12,151 nt of DNA from Paracoccaceae bacterium. Its GTDB lineage: Bacteria > Pseudomonadota > Alphaproteobacteria > Rhodobacterales > Rhodobacteraceae. Below, one piece after another: positions 1,151 through 12,151 of the stretch; the stretch's first letter is position 1; each line of letters starts with the position of its first letter. The notes beneath the pieces were generated by a model. It saw nothing but the letters and a program-made list of their open reading frames with translations. It made no database searches and was not told the DNA's origin. The stretch covers positions 1 to 12,151 of the forward strand of contig RGAJ01000028.1 in the NCBI GenBank assembly GCA_009920225.1. Reading direction: 5' to 3'. Position numbers and translations under genes: made by a program.

Positions 1151-2401
1151 ATGACCTTTATACCGAAATCAGAATTCCTTCAAATCATGCTAGATCGCGG
1201 CTTTGTCGCCGATTGCACCGATTACGAAGGCTTGGACGAGGCGTTGGTAAAAGGGGGCATGCCTGCCTATATCGGATTTGATGCGACCGCGAAATCCCTG
1301 CATGTTGGATCGCTGATCCAAATCATGATGCTGCGCTGGCTGCAAAAAACGGGCGGAAAACCCATCACCTTGATGGGCGGGGGCACAACCAAAGTGGGCG
1401 ATCCCAGCTTTCGCGCCGATGAACGCCCATTGCTAAGCGCCGAACAGATTGACGACAATATCGCCGGCATCAAACGCGTGTTCGCCGCCTATTTGACCTA
1501 TGACGATGGCGCCAGCGATGCAATGATGATCAACAATGCCGAATGGTTGGACGGGTTGAATTACCTTGAATTCTTGCGCGACGTGGGCCGTCATTTCAGC
1601 GTGAACCGCATGTTGTCGTTTGAATCGGTCAAATCCCGTTTGGACCGTGAACAATCGCTGTCGTTCCTTGAATTCAACTATATGATATTGCAGGCCTATG
1701 ATTTCATGGAACTGCACCAACGCTATGGCTGCATGTTGCAGATGGGCGGATCCGATCAGATGGGCAATATCATCAACGGAATGGAACTGACCCGTCGCGC
1801 GGCCGATGGTCGGGTTTACGGCCTAACGTCGCCCTTGCTGACCACATCAGACGGCAAGAAAATGGGCAAATCGCAAAATGGCGCGGTTTGGCTCAACGGC
1901 GATATGCTGTCGCCCTATGAATTCTGGCAATTCTGGCGCAACACAACAGATGCGGATGTGGGACGTTTCTTGAAACTCTACACTGAATTGCCAATCGACG
2001 AATGCAACCGCTTGGGCGCATTGGCCGGATCTGAGATCAACGATGCCAAAATCATCTTGGCGAACGAAGTCACAACCCTATTGCACGGCGCCGCGGCGGC
2101 AAAGGCAGCCGAAGCAACCGCCAAGGAAGTGTTCGAAAAAGGCGGCGTTGGGGATGATCTTCCCACCTTGACGCTGAGCGCTGCAGAATTGGGCGATGGT
2201 ATGTCGATCGTGCAAATCATTGTCCAAGCGGGCCTTGCCAAATCTGGGAAAGAGGCAAGGCGCCTGATCGCCGAAAACGGTGCGCGCCTAAATGACGAAC
2301 CGCTGACCGATGCAGGCCTGATGGTGACGCGTAATCAACTGACCACGCCGATCAAACTATCCGCAGGTAAAAAGCGGCACTCGTTGGTTAAACTCGGATA
2401 A
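1151..2401 (+). CDS. tyrS: Tyrosine--tRNA ligase
   Basis: Cytoplasmic class I aminoacyl-tRNA synthetase that activates tyrosine with ATP and charges tRNA-Tyr. It encodes 416 residues, normal for the bacterial enzyme. Visible motifs are HVGSL at 51-55 (HIGH signature), [11 protein letters not shown] at 76-86, the tyrosine-pocket QAYD at 181-184, GGSDQMGN at 199-206 and KKMGKS at 236-241 (KMSKS signature). A C-terminal S4 RNA-binding domain runs from about 352 to 412 ([15 protein letters not shown] and NGARLNDE). The frame is open far upstream, from 863, but that part is antisense to anmK. The ATG at 1151 gives the usual N-terminus (MTF-PKSEFL...[16 protein letters not shown]). The ribosome site is weak (GGGGCAAG). 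Nothing in the sequence suggests damage. Confidence 0.96.
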
Positions 2402-2422
2402 CCATCGACTTTCAAATATAAA

Positions 2423-2443
2423 GGCACCACATAACGTGGTGCC
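2423..2443 (+). terminator. Hairpin after tyrS, likely transcript end
   Basis: GGCACCAC (2423-2430) and GTGGTGCC (2436-2443) form a perfect 8-bp stem with a 5-nt loop, 21 bases after the tyrS stop. The following CCTTGTG is a poor U-tract, so this may only stabilise the 3' end. Confidence 0.5.
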
Positions 2444-2454
2444 CCTTGTGCACC

Positions 2455-2476
2455 TTTCATCTTTGCCCAATTACTC
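2455..2476 (+). repeat. Post-stop motif copy 1 (TTTCATCTTTGCnnAAATACTC type)
   Basis: TTTCATCTTTGCCCAATTACTC, 53 bases after the tyrS stop and just after the tyrS hairpin. It nearly matches the copies at 4998 and 10318, which also follow stop codons. From memory, similar strings are common after genes in Rhodobacteraceae; I know no assigned function. Confidence 0.55.
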
Positions 2477-2546
2477 ATTTCGCCACATCGCAACATGTCG
2501 GCGGTTCGATCATCCAAACGCCTTATGGAAAAAATGCATGAAACGC

Positions 2547-2582
2547 ATGATACCCTTCCCGTAATTACGGAAAGGGTATCAT
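2547..2582. repeat. 36-bp near-perfect palindrome between convergent genes
   Basis: ATGATACCCTT (2547-2557) pairs with AAGGGTATCAT (2572-2582), and the centre CCGTAATTACGG continues the dyad. The only mismatch is the C/A pair at 2558 and 2571. It lies in the 234-bp gap between the 3' ends of tyrS and the exported cyclophilin. A T-run about ten bases beyond it on the - strand (read from 2536 downward) could make it a terminator for the cyclophilin operon. A dispersed repeat or a protein-binding site are alternatives. The rest of this gap holds the tyrS hairpin, the post-stop motif and a GC palindrome at 2598-2611; I see no gene in it. Confidence 0.5.
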
Positions 2583-2597
2583 AAAAGTCGTGGCAAT

Positions 2598-2611
2598 GCG
2601 CGGCGCCGCGC
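2598..2611. repeat. GC-only 14-bp perfect palindrome after the cyclophilin operon
   Basis: GCGCGGCGCCGCGC is its own reverse complement and lies 24 bases past the stop of the exported cyclophilin gene. As RNA it could form a 5-bp GC stem with a 4-nt loop. On the - strand CTTTTATG follows at some distance, so a weak terminator role is possible. Confidence 0.35.
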
Positions 2612-2635
2612 CATCATCTTTAGGTGTCGTGAAAA

Positions 2636-3181
2636 TTATTGAACGACCCGAACTGAGACCATGCGATCAGGTTCACCCAAGACCGCGCCATTGCGACCTT
2701 CGCCGCGTTTGATGGCGTCAACAATATTCATGCCCTCGGTCACACGACCAACCACTGTATATTGCCCGTTCAGGAAATAGCCCTCGTCAAACATGATGAA
2801 AAACTGGCTGTTCGCGCTGTTGGGATCTTGGGATCGCGCCATGCCAACGATACCGCGATCATAGGGAACATCCGAAAATTCCGCAGGTAAATCAGGATAG
2901 GACGACCCACCCCGACCCGCCATGCGCAAATCTGATCCCAGCTTGCCAAATTCAACATCGCCTGTCTGCGCCATGAAACCATCAATCACACGGTGAAACA
3001 CCACATTATCATAGGCCCCCTCAGTCGCCAATGTCGCAATCCGTTCCGCATGTGCAGGTGCCACATCTTCGAACAGATCGATTGTGATCGTGCCATTTGC
3101 AACGCCTGCGACGTCGATTGTGATTTCAGACGCCGCGAGCGGTGTCGCCATGACGCATGCCGCAATCAAAAGGTTACGCAT
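2636..3181 (-). CDS. Exported cyclophilin-type peptidyl-prolyl cis-trans isomerase
   Basis: Cyclophilin that catalyses cis-trans isomerisation at X-Pro bonds, here probably in the periplasm. Residues 1-18 ([18 protein letters not shown]) look like a short signal peptide with cleavage near Ala-Ser; no lipobox Cys is placed for lipidation. The fold is covered by [14 protein letters not shown] at 62-75, with the catalytic Arg and the substrate-pocket Phe/Met/Gln, then GGRGG-type residues at 88-92, SANSQFF at 122-128 and FLNGQYTVVGRV at 136-147. The position of the cyclosporin-contacting Trp of human CypA holds Phe, as in many bacterial members. The 181-residue length is normal. Its ATG overlaps the end of the upstream cyclophilin gene by 8 bases (ATGCGTAA), so the two are probably translationally coupled. 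The pair looks like an old tandem duplication that split into cytoplasmic and exported forms. Confidence 0.92.
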   Translation of the reverse strand: MRNLLIAACVMATPLAASEITIDVAGVANGTITIDLFEDVAPAHAERIATLATEGAYDNVVFHRVIDGFMAQTGDVEFGKLGSDLRMAGRGGSSYPDLPAEFSDVPYDRGIVGMARSQDPNSANSQFFIMFDEGYFLNGQYTVVGRVTEGMNIVDAIKRGEGRNGAVLGEPDRMVSVRVVQ

Positions 3182-3680
3182 CTGCGGCGACCTTTACCGA
3201 AATCATCCGGTCAGGTGACATTGGCGGTTCGCCGCGCGTGATCGCATCGACATGTTCCATGCCTGAAATCACACGACCATACACAGTGTATTGACGGTTC
3301 AAGAAATGGTTGTCGTTAAAGTTGATGAAAAACTGGCTGTTCGCACTGTCCGGATTTGCCGAGCGCGCCGCACCCAACGTCCCACGATCATGGGGAATGC
3401 CAGAAAATTCTGCCTTGACGTTTGGCAACTCGGACCCACCTGTCCCGGCCATACGCAGATCGAAATCTTTCTCCATATTGCCGTTTTTCACGTCACCCGT
3501 TTGCGCCATGAATCCATCAATCACACGGTGGAAACATACATTGTCATAGGCACCAGAACGCGCCAGTTCTTTCATGCGCTCGCAATGAAGCGGGGCAATA
3601 TCAGGCAACAGTTCGATGATGACTGTACCATCTTTGAGTTCCATCAAAATTGTGTTTTCTGGATCTTTGATCTCGGCCAT
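3174..3680 (-). CDS. Cytoplasmic cyclophilin-type peptidyl-prolyl cis-trans isomerase
   Basis: 168-residue single-domain cyclophilin without a signal peptide ([18 protein letters not shown]...), so cytoplasmic; similar to E. coli PpiB in size. Key segments are [14 protein letters not shown] at 50-63, the [13 protein letters not shown] loop at 74-86, SANSQFF at 112-118 and [12 protein letters not shown] at 126-137. Catalytic Arg and pocket residues are present; Phe replaces the CsA-binding Trp. A strong ribosome site (AAAGGAG, 7 bases before ATG) marks this as the first gene of a two-gene operon. Its stop overlaps the start of the exported paralogue by 8 bases. The two proteins share the core motifs nearly word for word but differ at both termini. 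It diverges from pgk with a 123-bp gap. Confidence 0.93.
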
Positions 3681-3693
3681 GGGGCACTCCTTT

Positions 3694-3715
3694 GTTCATA
3701 TTTGCCCAGATACCT
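3694..3715 (+). repeat. Degenerate copy of the post-stop motif, in a divergent promoter region
   Basis: GTTCATATTTGCCCAGATACCT matches the TTTCATCTTTGCnnAAATACTC pattern at most positions. Unlike the other copies it does not follow a stop codon: it lies between the divergent cyclophilin and pgk genes. Confidence 0.35.
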
Positions 3716-3732
3716 AAGGCTCTTTTGCCTCA

Positions 3733-3761
3733 GGGACAAGCCATTGCGTGCGATATATAAG
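3733..3761 (+). promoter_or_regulatory. Possible pgk promoter
   Basis: GGGACA (3733-3738) and TATAAG (3756-3761) are separated by 17 bp and resemble sigma70 -35/-10 boxes, 43 bases before the pgk ATG. Match by eye only. Confidence 0.3.
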
Positions 3762-3803
3762 CGATGTATTGAAAATAAAAACTCTTGGAAATGGTACAAA
3801 GAC

Positions 3804-4994
3804 ATGGGCTGGAAAACTCTCGACGACATGAACCTCGCTGGTAAACGCGTTTTGATACGTGTTGACATTAACGTCCCGATGGATGGGACAACTGTAACCG
3901 ACGCCACGCGCATTGAAAAAATCGTACCGACCGTGCGCGACGTGCTCAGCGCCGGCGGACGCCCCATTCTTTTGGCCCATTTCGGGCGCCCCAAAGGCCA
4001 GCGCAATGATGATATGAGCCTGCGCCATCTGATCCCTACCTTGGAACACCATATCGGCGCGCCCGTCACATTTGTCGCCGATTGCATCGGTGCCGCAGCC
4101 CAAGCCGCGGCCGACACCTTGCCCGACGGTCAGGTTTTGGTCATGGAAAACACCCGTTTTCACACGGCCGAGGAAAAGAACGATCCCGACTTCGCCGCCG
4201 CCCTTGCAGCCAATGGCGACATCTACTGTAACGATGCCTTTTCTGCAGCCCACCGCGCGCATGCCTCGACCGAAGGAGTTGCGCGCCTTCTTCCATCTTG
4301 CGCAGGACGCTTGATGCAAGCAGAACTCAGCGCGCTCGAAGCGGCGCTTGGTACCCCAAAACGTCCTGTGGTCGCCATTGTCGGTGGCGCAAAAGTGTCC
4401 ACAAAATTGGAACTCTTGGGCAATTTGGTGGGCAAAGTCGATCATCTGGTGATTGGCGGCGGGATGGCAAACACATTTCTTGCGGCCCAAGGGATTGATG
4501 TGGGAAAATCCTTGGCTGAACATGACATGACAGACACTGCGCGCGAAATCTTGGCCAAGGCTGACACCGCAGGCTGCACCATCCACCTACCGACCGATGT
4601 GGTTGTAGCGCGTGAATTCGCCGCGAATGCCGCAAACGAAACCGTTGCCGCCACAGACTGCCCCGCTGATGCGATGATCTTGGATGCAGGTCCTGCAACC
4701 GTTTCCGCGATCAATGCGGTCTTCGATACCTGCAAAACGCTGATCTGGAACGGCCCCTTGGGTGCCTTTGAACTGACCCCATTTAACGCCGCAACAAATG
4801 CCGCCGCAGCCCATGCTGCAGCATTGTCCGAACAGGGAAAACTGATTTCCGTTGCCGGCGGCGGGGATACGGTTGCTGCTCTGAACCAAGCGGGCGCATC
4901 CGACAAATTCACCTATATCTCGACCGCCGGCGGCGCATTCCTAGAATGGATGGAAGGAAAAACACTTCCTGGCGTTGCGGCTTTGGGGGCATAA
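3804..4994 (+). CDS. pgk: Phosphoglycerate kinase
   Basis: Transfers phosphate between 1,3-bisphosphoglycerate and ADP in glycolysis and gluconeogenesis; monomeric two-domain cytoplasmic enzyme. It encodes 396 residues, the usual length. N-domain substrate residues are in RVDINVP (19-25), HFGRPKG (59-65) and ENTRF (115-119). The C-domain nucleotide site shows GGAKVSTK (194-201), NGPLGAFE (316-323), GGGDT (352-356) and the STAGGAFLE segment (373-381). The frame extends upstream to 3291, antisense to the cyclophilin gene; the ATG at 3804 gives the family's [14 protein letters not shown]-terminus. The upstream ribosome site is weak (GGAAATG further away). The next gene, an aldolase of the same pathway, is 167 bp downstream with its own candidate operator, so the two are probably separate transcription units. 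Confidence 0.96.
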
Positions 4995-4997
4995 TCC

Positions 4998-5019
4998 TTT
5001 CATCTTTGCACAAATACTC
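4998..5019 (+). repeat. Post-stop motif copy 2
   Basis: TTTCATCTTTGCACAAATACTC starts 3 bases after the pgk stop codon. It differs from the copy at 2455 at two positions. Confidence 0.55.
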
Positions 5020-10399: not shown

Positions 10400-11209
10400 T
10401 TATTCTGCGACTGGCAAAATTTGGTTCATGGACACAGACGGGTTGGGACACCCTGCTTCGCCCACCACTTTTGCAGGAACCCCTGCAACAGTCGTTTTGG
10501 GCGGAACTTCGTGCAGCACAACAGAGCCGGCAGCGATCCGGCTGCAATCACCCACTTTGATATTTCCCAAAACCTTGGCACCTGCACCGATCAACACGTT
10601 GTTGCCGATTTTCGGATGACGGTCTTCTTCTTCTTTTCCGGTGCCGCCAAGCGTGACAGAGTGCAACATAGACACATTGTCACCAACAACAGCCGTTTCG
10701 CCAATCACAATCGAATGGGCGTGATCAATCATGATGCCCTTTCCGATCCGCGCGGCAGGATGGATATCAATTCCGAATGCTTCGGACACCCGCATTTGGA
10801 ACAAATAGGCCAAGTCCTTGCGACCTTGGTTCCACAACCAATGTGCCACGCGATAGGACTGCACCGCTTGAAACCCCTTAAAGAACATCAGCGGCTGTAA
10901 ATACCGATGGCATGCAGGATCACGCTCATAGACCGCCGCGATATCCGCACGCGCAGCATAAGACAGCGCTGGATCATCTGCGTAGGCTTCATCACAGATC
11001 TCGCGGATCAACTGTTCTGACATTTCATTCGACGCAAGCTTTGACGCAATGCGATATGCCAACGCTTGTTCAATTGATCGATGATGCAACACGCACGAAT
11101 GTAACATCCCACCCAAAAGCGGTTCTTGTTCCACTGCCTCTTGCGCCTCTTGCACCAAACGTGCCCAAATCGGATCTAGCTTTGCAATGTTTTCAAGTGT
11201 CTTAGCCAT
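10400..11209 (-). CDS. cysE: Serine O-acetyltransferase
   Basis: Acetylates L-serine with acetyl-CoA to O-acetylserine, the first step of cysteine synthesis; a cytoplasmic hexamer in the family. It encodes 269 residues. An N-terminal helical domain (1-~140, including LQPLMFFKGFQAVQSYRVAHWLW) is followed by a left-handed beta-helix of hexapeptide repeats (about 148-250). Catalytic Asp-His are D148 (DIHPAARIG) and H163 (MIDHAHSIVIGE) by comparison with E. coli D143/H158; the SVTLGGTGK loop at 184-192 binds CoA. AGGAG precedes the ATG by 8 bases. The C-terminus ends PVAE, not in the Ile that E. coli CysE uses to bind CysK. In Rhodobacterales, cysE commonly flanks the GTA cluster (recalled), which fits the portal fragment upstream. 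Confidence 0.95.
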   Translation of the reverse strand: MAKTLENIAKLDPIWARLVQEAQEAVEQEPLLGGMLHSCVLHHRSIEQALAYRIASKLASNEMSEQLIREICDEAYADDPALSYAARADIAAVYERDPACHRYLQPLMFFKGFQAVQSYRVAHWLWNQGRKDLAYLFQMRVSEAFGIDIHPAARIGKGIMIDHAHSIVIGETAVVGDNVSMLHSVTLGGTGKEEEDRHPKIGNNVLIGAGAKVLGNIKVGDCSRIAAGSVVLHEVPPKTTVAGVPAKVVGEAGCPNPSVSMNQILPVAE

Positions 11210-11278: not shown

Positions 11279-11294
11279 ATTACGATTTCGTAAT
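11279..11294. repeat. Short inverted repeat over the stop of the portal fusion
   Basis: ATTACGA-TT-TCGTAAT (11279-11294), 7-bp arms, covering the TAA of the fused ORF. It has no T-run; it may be a weak 3' hairpin or chance. Confidence 0.25.
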
Positions 11295-11999
11295 CCTGTG
11301 TAAAATGACCGTCGACACGACTTGGATCGCGTGTGCGTAATCGGGATCATTCAGAAATGGTTCTGGCGGACGTGGCTGTGACGCAAGATATTGACCAAGC
11401 GACCCGTTTCCATGCTGTGTGGCACGTCCCAATCTTTTGCGAATTTTGTCAGCACTGTGCACACGATCAAACAGTGATACACAAACCATATACCGCAGAC
11501 TGGGCGGCACCAGTAAAAGATACCGCGCCGCCCAAGCCAAATCCGTCACAGGCCACCCATCCGCCCCGGGCACCAATGCCATGCGATCAGACCGCAGAAC
11601 ATGTAATTCTGCCACCGTATCATCCGCGCCGCTGACCATTTCGACATAGGCATTTCCCGTCAGGATCAACTGACCATAAAGCGATTCCAAAAAATCGGCT
11701 AGGGTTTGTGCTGCATTGGGGGATCGAATCAATCGCAAAATGGGATGGTCGCTATAGCGTGTGTCTGCGTCTTGCAAAACCAAAGGCACTGCGGCGGCAG
11801 CCTCTGCAATCAACTTAACCGCACGAAATTCAACCGGATTTCCACAATATCCCGTTTTGGTCAAACTGCTGGTATCACGCGCGCTCCAAACCACGCGGCC
11901 CGATGAATGATAGGCCACCACAGGACCGGTGGCTGACGTCTTGCGCGACGGCGCGGATTGGGGCGATTGTTTGCGTCGAAACAAATCCCGTATGGCCAT
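11280..11999 (-). CDS. Chimeric ORF: GTA/HK97-type portal N-terminus fused to a small Rhodobacteraceae protein
   Basis: The 239-residue ORF has two halves. Residues 1-~151 match the start of the HK97-family portal of Rhodobacter-type gene transfer agents (RcGTA g3): RTGPVV/GRVVW-like start, GNPVEFRAVKLIAEAAAAVPL at 53-73, HPILRLIRSPN at 85-95, LYGQLILTGNAYVE at 107-120 and ELHVLRSDRMALVPGADGWP at 131-150. A portal should continue for ~250 more residues with the clip and crown domains. Instead, from about 152 the frame reads DLAWAARYLLLVPPSLRYM... RKRLGRATQHGNGSL... PPEPFLNDPDY. I recall this pattern from a small uncharacterised Rhodobacterales family (possibly DUF7742) near GTA/cysE. Codon use is normal on both sides. 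AAGGAG precedes the ATG by 7 bases. A functional portal is very unlikely. This looks like the scar of a GTA cluster deletion or a misassembly. Confidence 0.75.
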   Translation of the reverse strand: MAIRDLFRRKQSPQSAPSRKTSATGPVVAYHSSGRVVWSARDTSSLTKTGYCGNPVEFRAVKLIAEAAAAVPLVLQDADTRYSDHPILRLIRSPNAAQTLADFLESLYGQLILTGNAYVEMVSGADDTVAELHVLRSDRMALVPGADGWPVTDLAWAARYLLLVPPSLRYMVCVSLFDRVHSADKIRKRLGRATQHGNGSLGQYLASQPRPPEPFLNDPDYAHAIQVVSTVILHRITKS

Positions 12000-12089
12000 G
12001 TCATGCTCCTTTATCGTTTTCGATCAAATGATCTGTGTCTGGAACACTATGGCGTACAGGTCTTAATTCAGGCCCCTAGCGACGCGCGG

Positions 12090-12113
12090 TGGGTGTTGCG
12101 GACACAACACCCA
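12090..12113. repeat. Hairpin upstream of the portal fragment
   Basis: TGGGTGTTG (12090-12098) and CAACACCCA (12105-12113): perfect 9-bp arms with a 6-nt loop, no T-run. It sits 91 bases upstream of the portal ATG. The last 152 bases show no convincing coding frame on either strand; a terminase end was looked for and not recognised. Confidence 0.4.
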
Positions 12114-12151
12114 TCTCACACGCACAGCGCATAAAAGGGGTCACGCCCTAC

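What the first reader, a model, noticed from the sequence alone, without database searches (positions are those of the whole stretch)
11280..11999. In-frame scar of a gene transfer agent: portal N-terminus fused to a downstream small gene next to cysE
The first ~151 residues are a GTA-type portal. The remaining ~88 belong to another protein that resembles a small Rhodobacterales family I recall beside GTA/cysE. In that order's usual layout (terminase, portal, ... tail genes, ..., cysE; recalled) one deletion from mid-portal to the start of the small gene would remove nearly all GTA structural genes and give exactly this order. The join lies between about 11540 and 11552; Pro-Val could come from either partner, so short microhomology is possible. 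It would show how a lineage loses its GTA, possibly leaving a still expressed fusion.
Basis: partly seen in the sequence, partly recalled or inferred. Interest (0 to 1): 0.7.

Follow-up and report, generated by a model that had tools for sequence, protein, structure and literature searches.

The report
Scar of a deleted gene-transfer agent
A marine bacterium has lost almost all genes of its virus-like DNA-transfer particle by a large deletion that left a two-gene fusion, and relatives have lost theirs too, many of them through one deletion that joins the same two codons each time.

Summary
The minus-strand ORF 11999-11280 is a GTA portal N-terminus (residues 1-151) fused in frame to DUF7742 (152-239), upstream of cysE; the join lies at 11547/11546. 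About 11.8 kb (rest of g3 to the start of DUF7742) is missing relative to intact relatives; portal C-half, g5, g12 and g13 were searched for and not found elsewhere in the genome. The single-deletion story is incomplete: g1-g2 sit on another contig followed by an unrelated gene (DUF3422), so there is a second breakpoint or a mis-join. Near-identical intact portals and other portal::DUF7742 joins occur among metagenome proteins, and a congener has a different deletion (g2::g15). I read it as a decaying GTA-loss scar, not a designed fusion. GTA loss in Alphaproteobacteria is already in print. Not found in my eight literature searches: 31 genomes, scattered over the family, share a different scar in which the TerL Walker-B Glu codon is joined to a g15 Glu codon, at the same codon. 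Homology, DNA-site conservation, shared flanks and a folded chimera do not explain it. No reads were available, so a mis-join in the window itself is not excluded.

The parts
11547..11999 (-). portal (g3) remnant, residues 1-151 of about 391
   Evidence: Pfam PF04860; 97-99% identical to intact 391-aa portals P0001, P0002, P0005; G57E at a site that is Gly in 225 of 230 mapped homologues
11280..11546 (-). DUF7742 remnant, nearly complete, fused in frame; own start codon lost (inferred)
   Evidence: Pfam PF24891; 99-aa free-standing homologue in G001
11544..11549 (-). deletion junction, portal codon 151 to one of the first codons of DUF7742
   Evidence: intact portals read GWPVA here; P0003 shares the DUF7742 DNA from 11545 downwards
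10400..11209 (-). cysE, right-hand landmark of the GTA locus
   Evidence: downstream of g15/DUF7742 in relatives; cysE1 directly downstream of the RcGTA cluster in R. capsulatus (PMC9552610, passages)
12000..12151 (-). 152 bp upstream of the portal start to the contig end, with a strong hairpin
   Evidence: fold z-score -2.39; contig ends at 12151

Best explanation
The locus is the scar of a lost RcGTA-type gene transfer agent. A deletion of about 11.8 kb took what lies between mid-portal and the start of DUF7742 in relatives (portal C-terminus and, by position, g4 to g15) and joined the portal N-terminus in frame to DUF7742. No particle can be made from what is left (inferred from the missing genes), so the fusion most likely has no GTA function and is decaying; DUF7742 may still be translated as a tail of the fusion (inferred). 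The lineage is one of many in the family that lose the GTA by single large deletions, mostly between g2/g3 and g15/DUF7742, which fits loss of a costly producer trait (cheater idea of PMC10883770).
For: Pfam split at the join; intact order in relatives; no portal C-half, g5, g12 or g13 in G000 or G001 with a query that finds terminase, g5, g12 and g13 in three intact controls; different deletion in congener G001 (g2::g15); other portal::DUF7742 joins in metagenome proteins: P0003 (right end within about 6 bp of the window's), P0011, and P0207 from another lineage; intact portal alleles at 97-99% identity; G57E at a near-invariant site; scars with different junctions in relatives: L167, L171, L217, L219, L220, L449-L452.
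Against: Fragmented assembly, no reads, the join seen once in DNA. g1-g2 on another contig beside DUF3422 needs a second event or a mis-join. Only two portal differences from P0002, so decay is weakly shown. P0003, P0011 and P0207 come from metagenome contigs whose DNA I could not read; P0003's 11 cluster members are grouped at 90% identity and need not all carry the join. Two more odd portals of the same species group (P0004, P0012) have tails that I could not place. Only some of the missing genes (portal C-half, g5, g12, g13) were searched for in G000.
Confidence: 0.82

Rival explanations
1. Assembly chimera: strains with intact GTA and strains with other deletions were collapsed, and the join is an assembler's product.
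For: 586 contigs; the species group has intact and deleted alleles; C50 and C191 do not fit into one simple locus.
Against: The partner is exactly the gene next to cysE; similar joins occur in separate records (P0003, P0011, P0207); no leftover portal C-half in G000; congener G001 also lost the portal, g5, g12 and g13.
Confidence: 0.13
2. A selected, functional fusion protein portal-DUF7742.
For: Frame kept; DUF7742 nearly whole; the P0003-type allele seems to keep DUF7742 from its start.
Against: Only G000 shows it among the listed hits of 394 family genomes; the P0011 allele keeps only the second half of DUF7742; G57E at a near-invariant portal site; the frame is kept by chance one time in three.
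Confidence: 0.04

Closest known systems
RcGTA-like gene cluster of Rhodobacterales (g1-g15, cysE downstream)
   Same: Same portal family, same flanking genes mltG-g1-g2 and DUF7742/cysE
   Different: portal C-half, g5, g12, g13 not found; g1-g2 on another contig; particle production not expected
Pseudogenised or lost GTA clusters of Alphaproteobacteria (PMC10883770, passages read)
   Same: Loss of a GTA in some lineages while relatives keep it
   Different: Here the exact junction is given, several alleles exist in one species group, and a codon-exact scar recurs in 31 other genomes; the passages that I saw describe no junctions
Convergent gene loss by deletion in other bacteria (ABC transporter loss in C. 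difficile, PMC5951980, search listing with start of abstract only)
   Same: Repeated loss of the same genes
   Different: Not compared at the level of junctions

Membership tests
RcGTA-type GTA, functional | terminase, portal, capsid and tail genes g2-g15 in one cluster | tested here: not met
   only g1, g2 (C50) and portal N-terminus found in G000; portal C-half, g5, g12, g13 not found
RcGTA-type GTA, remnant | homologous genes at the canonical place between mltG and cysE | tested here: met
   portal::DUF7742 directly upstream of cysE; mltG-g1-g2 on C50; the two contigs are not shown to be neighbours
Phage_portal PF04860 | whole-domain match | tested here: not met
   above cut-off (70 vs 39.1 bits) but only profile positions 4-93 of 321
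DUF7742 PF24891 | whole-domain match above cut-off | tested here: met
   64.6 vs 27 bits, positions 6-83 of 87
Class A scar (TerL Glu::g15 Glu) | junction at the shared GA[AG] codon of TerL Walker B and g15 | tested here: not met
   window junction is portal::DUF7742; terL in C50 is full-length

The most novel reading that the evidence does not exclude
Rhodobacteraceae erase their GTA through a deletion hot spot that is exact to one codon: the Walker-B Glu codon of the terminase is joined to a Glu codon of g15, removing about 11.3 kb, in many lineages independently, by a mechanism that neither sequence homology nor a conserved DNA site accounts for; the window shows a different junction of the same erasure process. 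The alternative single-origin form is a trans-species GTA-minus allele whose flanks were rewritten by recombination.
Probability: 0.5. Interest if true: 0.8.

Novelty: new member of a known kind. Interest (0 to 1): 0.5.

Why it matters
Why GTAs persist although producers die is an open question; a published model finds that non-producers can invade (PMC6209664, passages). Sequence-exact scars with intact alleles in near-identical relatives let one measure how often and how GTAs are lost. The codon-exact scar found while checking this window gives a testable hot spot, in cultured strains such as Ruegeria sediminis and Marivita geojedonensis.

Tried and rejected

Homology-driven deletion for class A: rejected. 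In the 10 of 16 intact clusters where both sites were found, from a few hundred (L204, the best case) to more than a million window pairs match better than the site pair. In 8 of 10 clusters the site pair is not among the 1,560-5,000 listed HSPs; in L204 and L205 it ranks 872 and 1,068.

Conserved DNA site: no excess synonymous conservation at the terL site (its windows rank 221-333 of 345, 1 being most conserved); the g15 site windows rank 29-100 of 188.

Transfer of one class A allele with long flanks: junction flanks match the own genus on both sides where close intact sisters exist. In Ruegeria the nearest 36 bp show Fst 0.026 (p 0.13, left) and -0.016 (p 0.73, right). Against this, two windows 75-266 bp to the right show Fst 0.044 and 0.036 at p about 0.01, of 16 windows tested on all positions. 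At the family level class A differs from intact near the join in residue make-up (g15 position 655: Pro or Gly in 10 of 23 against 20 of 212; terL position 210: Leu in 3 of 22 against 0 of 108), which a single origin could also give.

Re-gain of intact clusters: g12/g13 distances follow g15 distances, r 0.84 over 72 loci; the nearest neighbour was the same in 36 of 72 and within the top three in 51 of 72.

Functional class A chimera: overall N/S is like the intact sisters' (terL 325/445 against 354/416, g15 1624/1464 against 1636/1290; 23 class A genomes, one without usable g15 counts) and omega is like that of intact pairs. But changes at invariant sites are raised (1.17 vs 0.66 per 100 codons in terL, p 0.0009; 1.18 vs 0.65 in g15, p 0.007; 10 class A vs 34 intact, of which one, L448, is an outlier with 4-10 changes), and AlphaFold gives pLDDT under 50 for residues 145-269 around the join, with a shallow alignment of 15 rows and mean pLDDT 67.

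Class A as assembly error: unlikely, since it also sits in a one-contig genome (G123) and in a 3.6-Mb contig (G500). Two viral-contig scans for same-species intact partners found nothing above 84% identity. The first genome-contig scan, with the window fusion, found no relative.

Full report
What is there. The ORF named in the finding is real but runs on the minus strand, 11999 to 11280, 239 codons. Its first 151 residues are a GTA portal cut short and its last 88 are a nearly whole DUF7742 domain; Pfam splits it at residues 147/152, and each half alone matches only its own family. The window is an entire contig, C191 of genome G000, which has 586 contigs and is 92.3% complete. cysE follows on the same strand at 11209-10400.

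Normal layout. In relatives the portal and DUF7742 lie on one strand and contig, 12.0-13.2 kb apart in G004, G007, G012, G017, G022, G027 and G033, and 8 kb apart in G015, which proved to be a scar itself; in G014 the two matches lie on different contigs. Fetched loci show mltG, g2, g3 ... g15, sometimes a DUF2793 gene, DUF7742 where detected, and cysE in this order. From portal residue 151 to the DUF7742 start is about 11.8 kb in L202, L204 and L205 (my arithmetic). In R. capsulatus the serine acetyltransferase gene cysE1 is directly downstream of the GTA cluster, with g16 between (PMC9552610, passages).

What is missing. An intact portal query finds only residues 1-152 in G000 and nothing in G001 and G002, the other two genomes of the genus. 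A joined query of TerL C-part, g5, g12 and g13 finds only terminase in G000 and in G001 and nothing in G002. The same query finds terminase, g5, g12 and g13 in three intact controls (G011, G013, G018), terminase and g5 in G021, terminase and the g12-g13 stretch in G015, and nothing in G032. The other structural genes were not searched for one by one.

A second breakpoint. In G000, mltG, g1 and a full-length terminase are on contig C50 (5,501 bases). Downstream, 123 bp after the terminase, stands a DUF3422 gene and then a sulphur-transport gene on the other strand. Among the fetched loci numbered L120 and up, DUF3422 was found only in this place of G000 (L286 and L284). The window contig ends 152 bp upstream of the portal. 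So besides the portal::DUF7742 deletion there is either a rearrangement between g2 and g3 or a mixture of strains in the assembly.

Other alleles. The protein search gave intact 391-aa portals 97-99% identical over the shared part (P0001, P0002, P0005; cluster sizes 4, 21 and 1). It also gave P0011 (portal 1-93 joined to the second half of DUF7742) and P0003 (portal 1 to about 318 running into DUF7742 DNA in another frame; cluster of 11 at 90% identity). P0003 matches window DNA from 11545 on at 98% over 64 residues, so its right-hand end lies within about 6 bp of the window's. It implies a DUF7742 start NTG-YCG-ACG-GAT, which leaves about one base of microhomology at the window join (inference). 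P0207 is a portal::DUF7742 join from another lineage, with DUF7742 just over its cut-off (27.4 vs 27 bits). P0004 and P0012 have other tails that I could not place. A search restricted to the DUF7742 half found P0011 alone, of 9 candidates, and missed P0207. These records are protein clusters; I could not read their DNA.

Congener. G001 (same genus) has mltG, g1, g2 to residue 489 of the reference, then g15 from residue 616, a free-standing 99-aa DUF7742 and cysE: a different deletion.

How it works, shown and inferred. Shown: absence of the genes searched for and an in-frame join. Inferred: no particles, no GTA function, decay. The portal part carries G57E where 225 of 230 mapped homologues have Gly, and Q100L against P0002. 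Published work already reports pseudogenisation and complete loss of GTAs in several lineages and suggests cheaters (PMC10883770, passages); a model finds that GTA-plus populations do not resist invasion by non-producers (PMC6209664, passages).

Survey of named genomes. Of 80 named cysE loci, 56 show at least six of the twelve genes g4-g14 in view (one of them, L184, without hits to g13 and g14). Eleven show g2 or g3 fragments joined to g15 with no hit to g4-g14: L121, L130, L141, L144, L164, L167, L168, L171, L172, L178, L194. Thirteen are cut by contig ends, show only other remnants or lack GTA genes in view. Two of the last group, L193 and L199, keep terminase and portal elsewhere in the genome.

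An unexpected regularity. Nine of those eleven (all but L167 and L171) have the same junction: the GA[AG] codon of the TerL Walker-B motif (FDxAWxDE; motif name recalled) joined to the GA[AG] codon of g15 (WFTExGC), at the same codon in each. Their genomes show no GTA portal elsewhere: 8 of 9 have no match, and one has a 30% match. A family sample of 394 genomes, nearly one per genus, has 16 hits that span this join. The same codon was seen in 12 of the 16 by motif, in L258 by translation, and in L265, L267 and L269 by alignment coordinates. Two of the 16 duplicate named genomes. In the genus of Ruegeria sediminis 10 of 54 species carry it, two of them counted before. That makes 31 distinct genomes.

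Is it one event or many? On a g15 C-terminal tree of 90 rows the nine named class A loci need nine changes, all forced by starred branches. On a larger tree of 120 rows the label needs 17 changes, 12 forced (22 labelled rows, two of them duplicates; L121 and L258 stood unlabelled and L260 was too short; shuffled mean 20.4, 10 of 500 as low, so the label is somewhat clustered). In Ruegeria it needs 7 changes, 5 forced, among 31 rows; two of those rows (L255, L256) are class A genomes of other genera that I had left unlabelled, so the number is approximate. Flanks match the own genus on both sides where close sisters exist, and in Ruegeria class A and intact alleles do not differ in the 36 bp next to the join, although two windows 75-266 bp away differ at p about 0.01. 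This favours repeated deletion, but one old allele with thorough recombination is not excluded. Homology and conserved synonymous sites do not mark the place. The chimera is open in 7 of the 9 named cases, evolves at the rate of intact genes overall, but shows more changes at invariant sites, for example G69E in the P-loop of L428 and a stop in L433; AlphaFold does not fold the join. I read these as young scars. The cause of the exact junction is unexplained. Four other scars that I fetched from Ruegeria have four different junctions (L449-L452); G465, G487, G493 and G508, which lack one or both matches, were not typed.

Verdict. The window is a real-looking GTA-loss scar, of a kind that is known in outline. 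A mis-join remains possible without reads. Among the listed hits of the 394-genome sample the portal::DUF7742 fusion itself is seen only in G000. Eight literature searches listed no paper whose title or shown abstract start reports the codon-exact scar; I saw listings and the passages cited, no whole text.

Noticed in passing
L121, L130, L141, L144, L164, L168, L172, L178, L194, L254-L269, L387-L394: The same codon-exact TerL::g15 deletion scar in 31 distinct genomes scattered over the family; mechanism not found.
   Followed up: partly
L286 (G000:C50) 1673-4485: Full-length GTA terminase followed 123 bp later by a DUF3422 gene instead of the portal.
   Followed up: partly
L449, L450, L451, L452 (Ruegeria relatives): Four further GTA deletions with four different junctions (g2::g15, g2::g14, g3::g15, g2::g15 near its end).
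   Followed up: partly
L193, L199 (Roseovarius): No GTA genes beside cysE, but terminase and portal matches elsewhere in the genome; in G077 (L199) they are about 90 kb apart.
   Followed up: no
L181, L198: mltG lies directly upstream of cysE with no GTA hit in between; no portal match in these genomes.
   Followed up: no
P0132: A metagenome protein that joins a GTA portal N-terminus to a MoeA N-terminal domain.
   Followed up: no
window 12000-12151: Strong hairpin upstream of the portal remnant (fold z-score -2.39).
   Followed up: no
window 2636-3680: Two adjacent cyclophilin-like ORFs on the minus strand; only the second (3174-3680) was tested against Pfam and matched.
   Followed up: no
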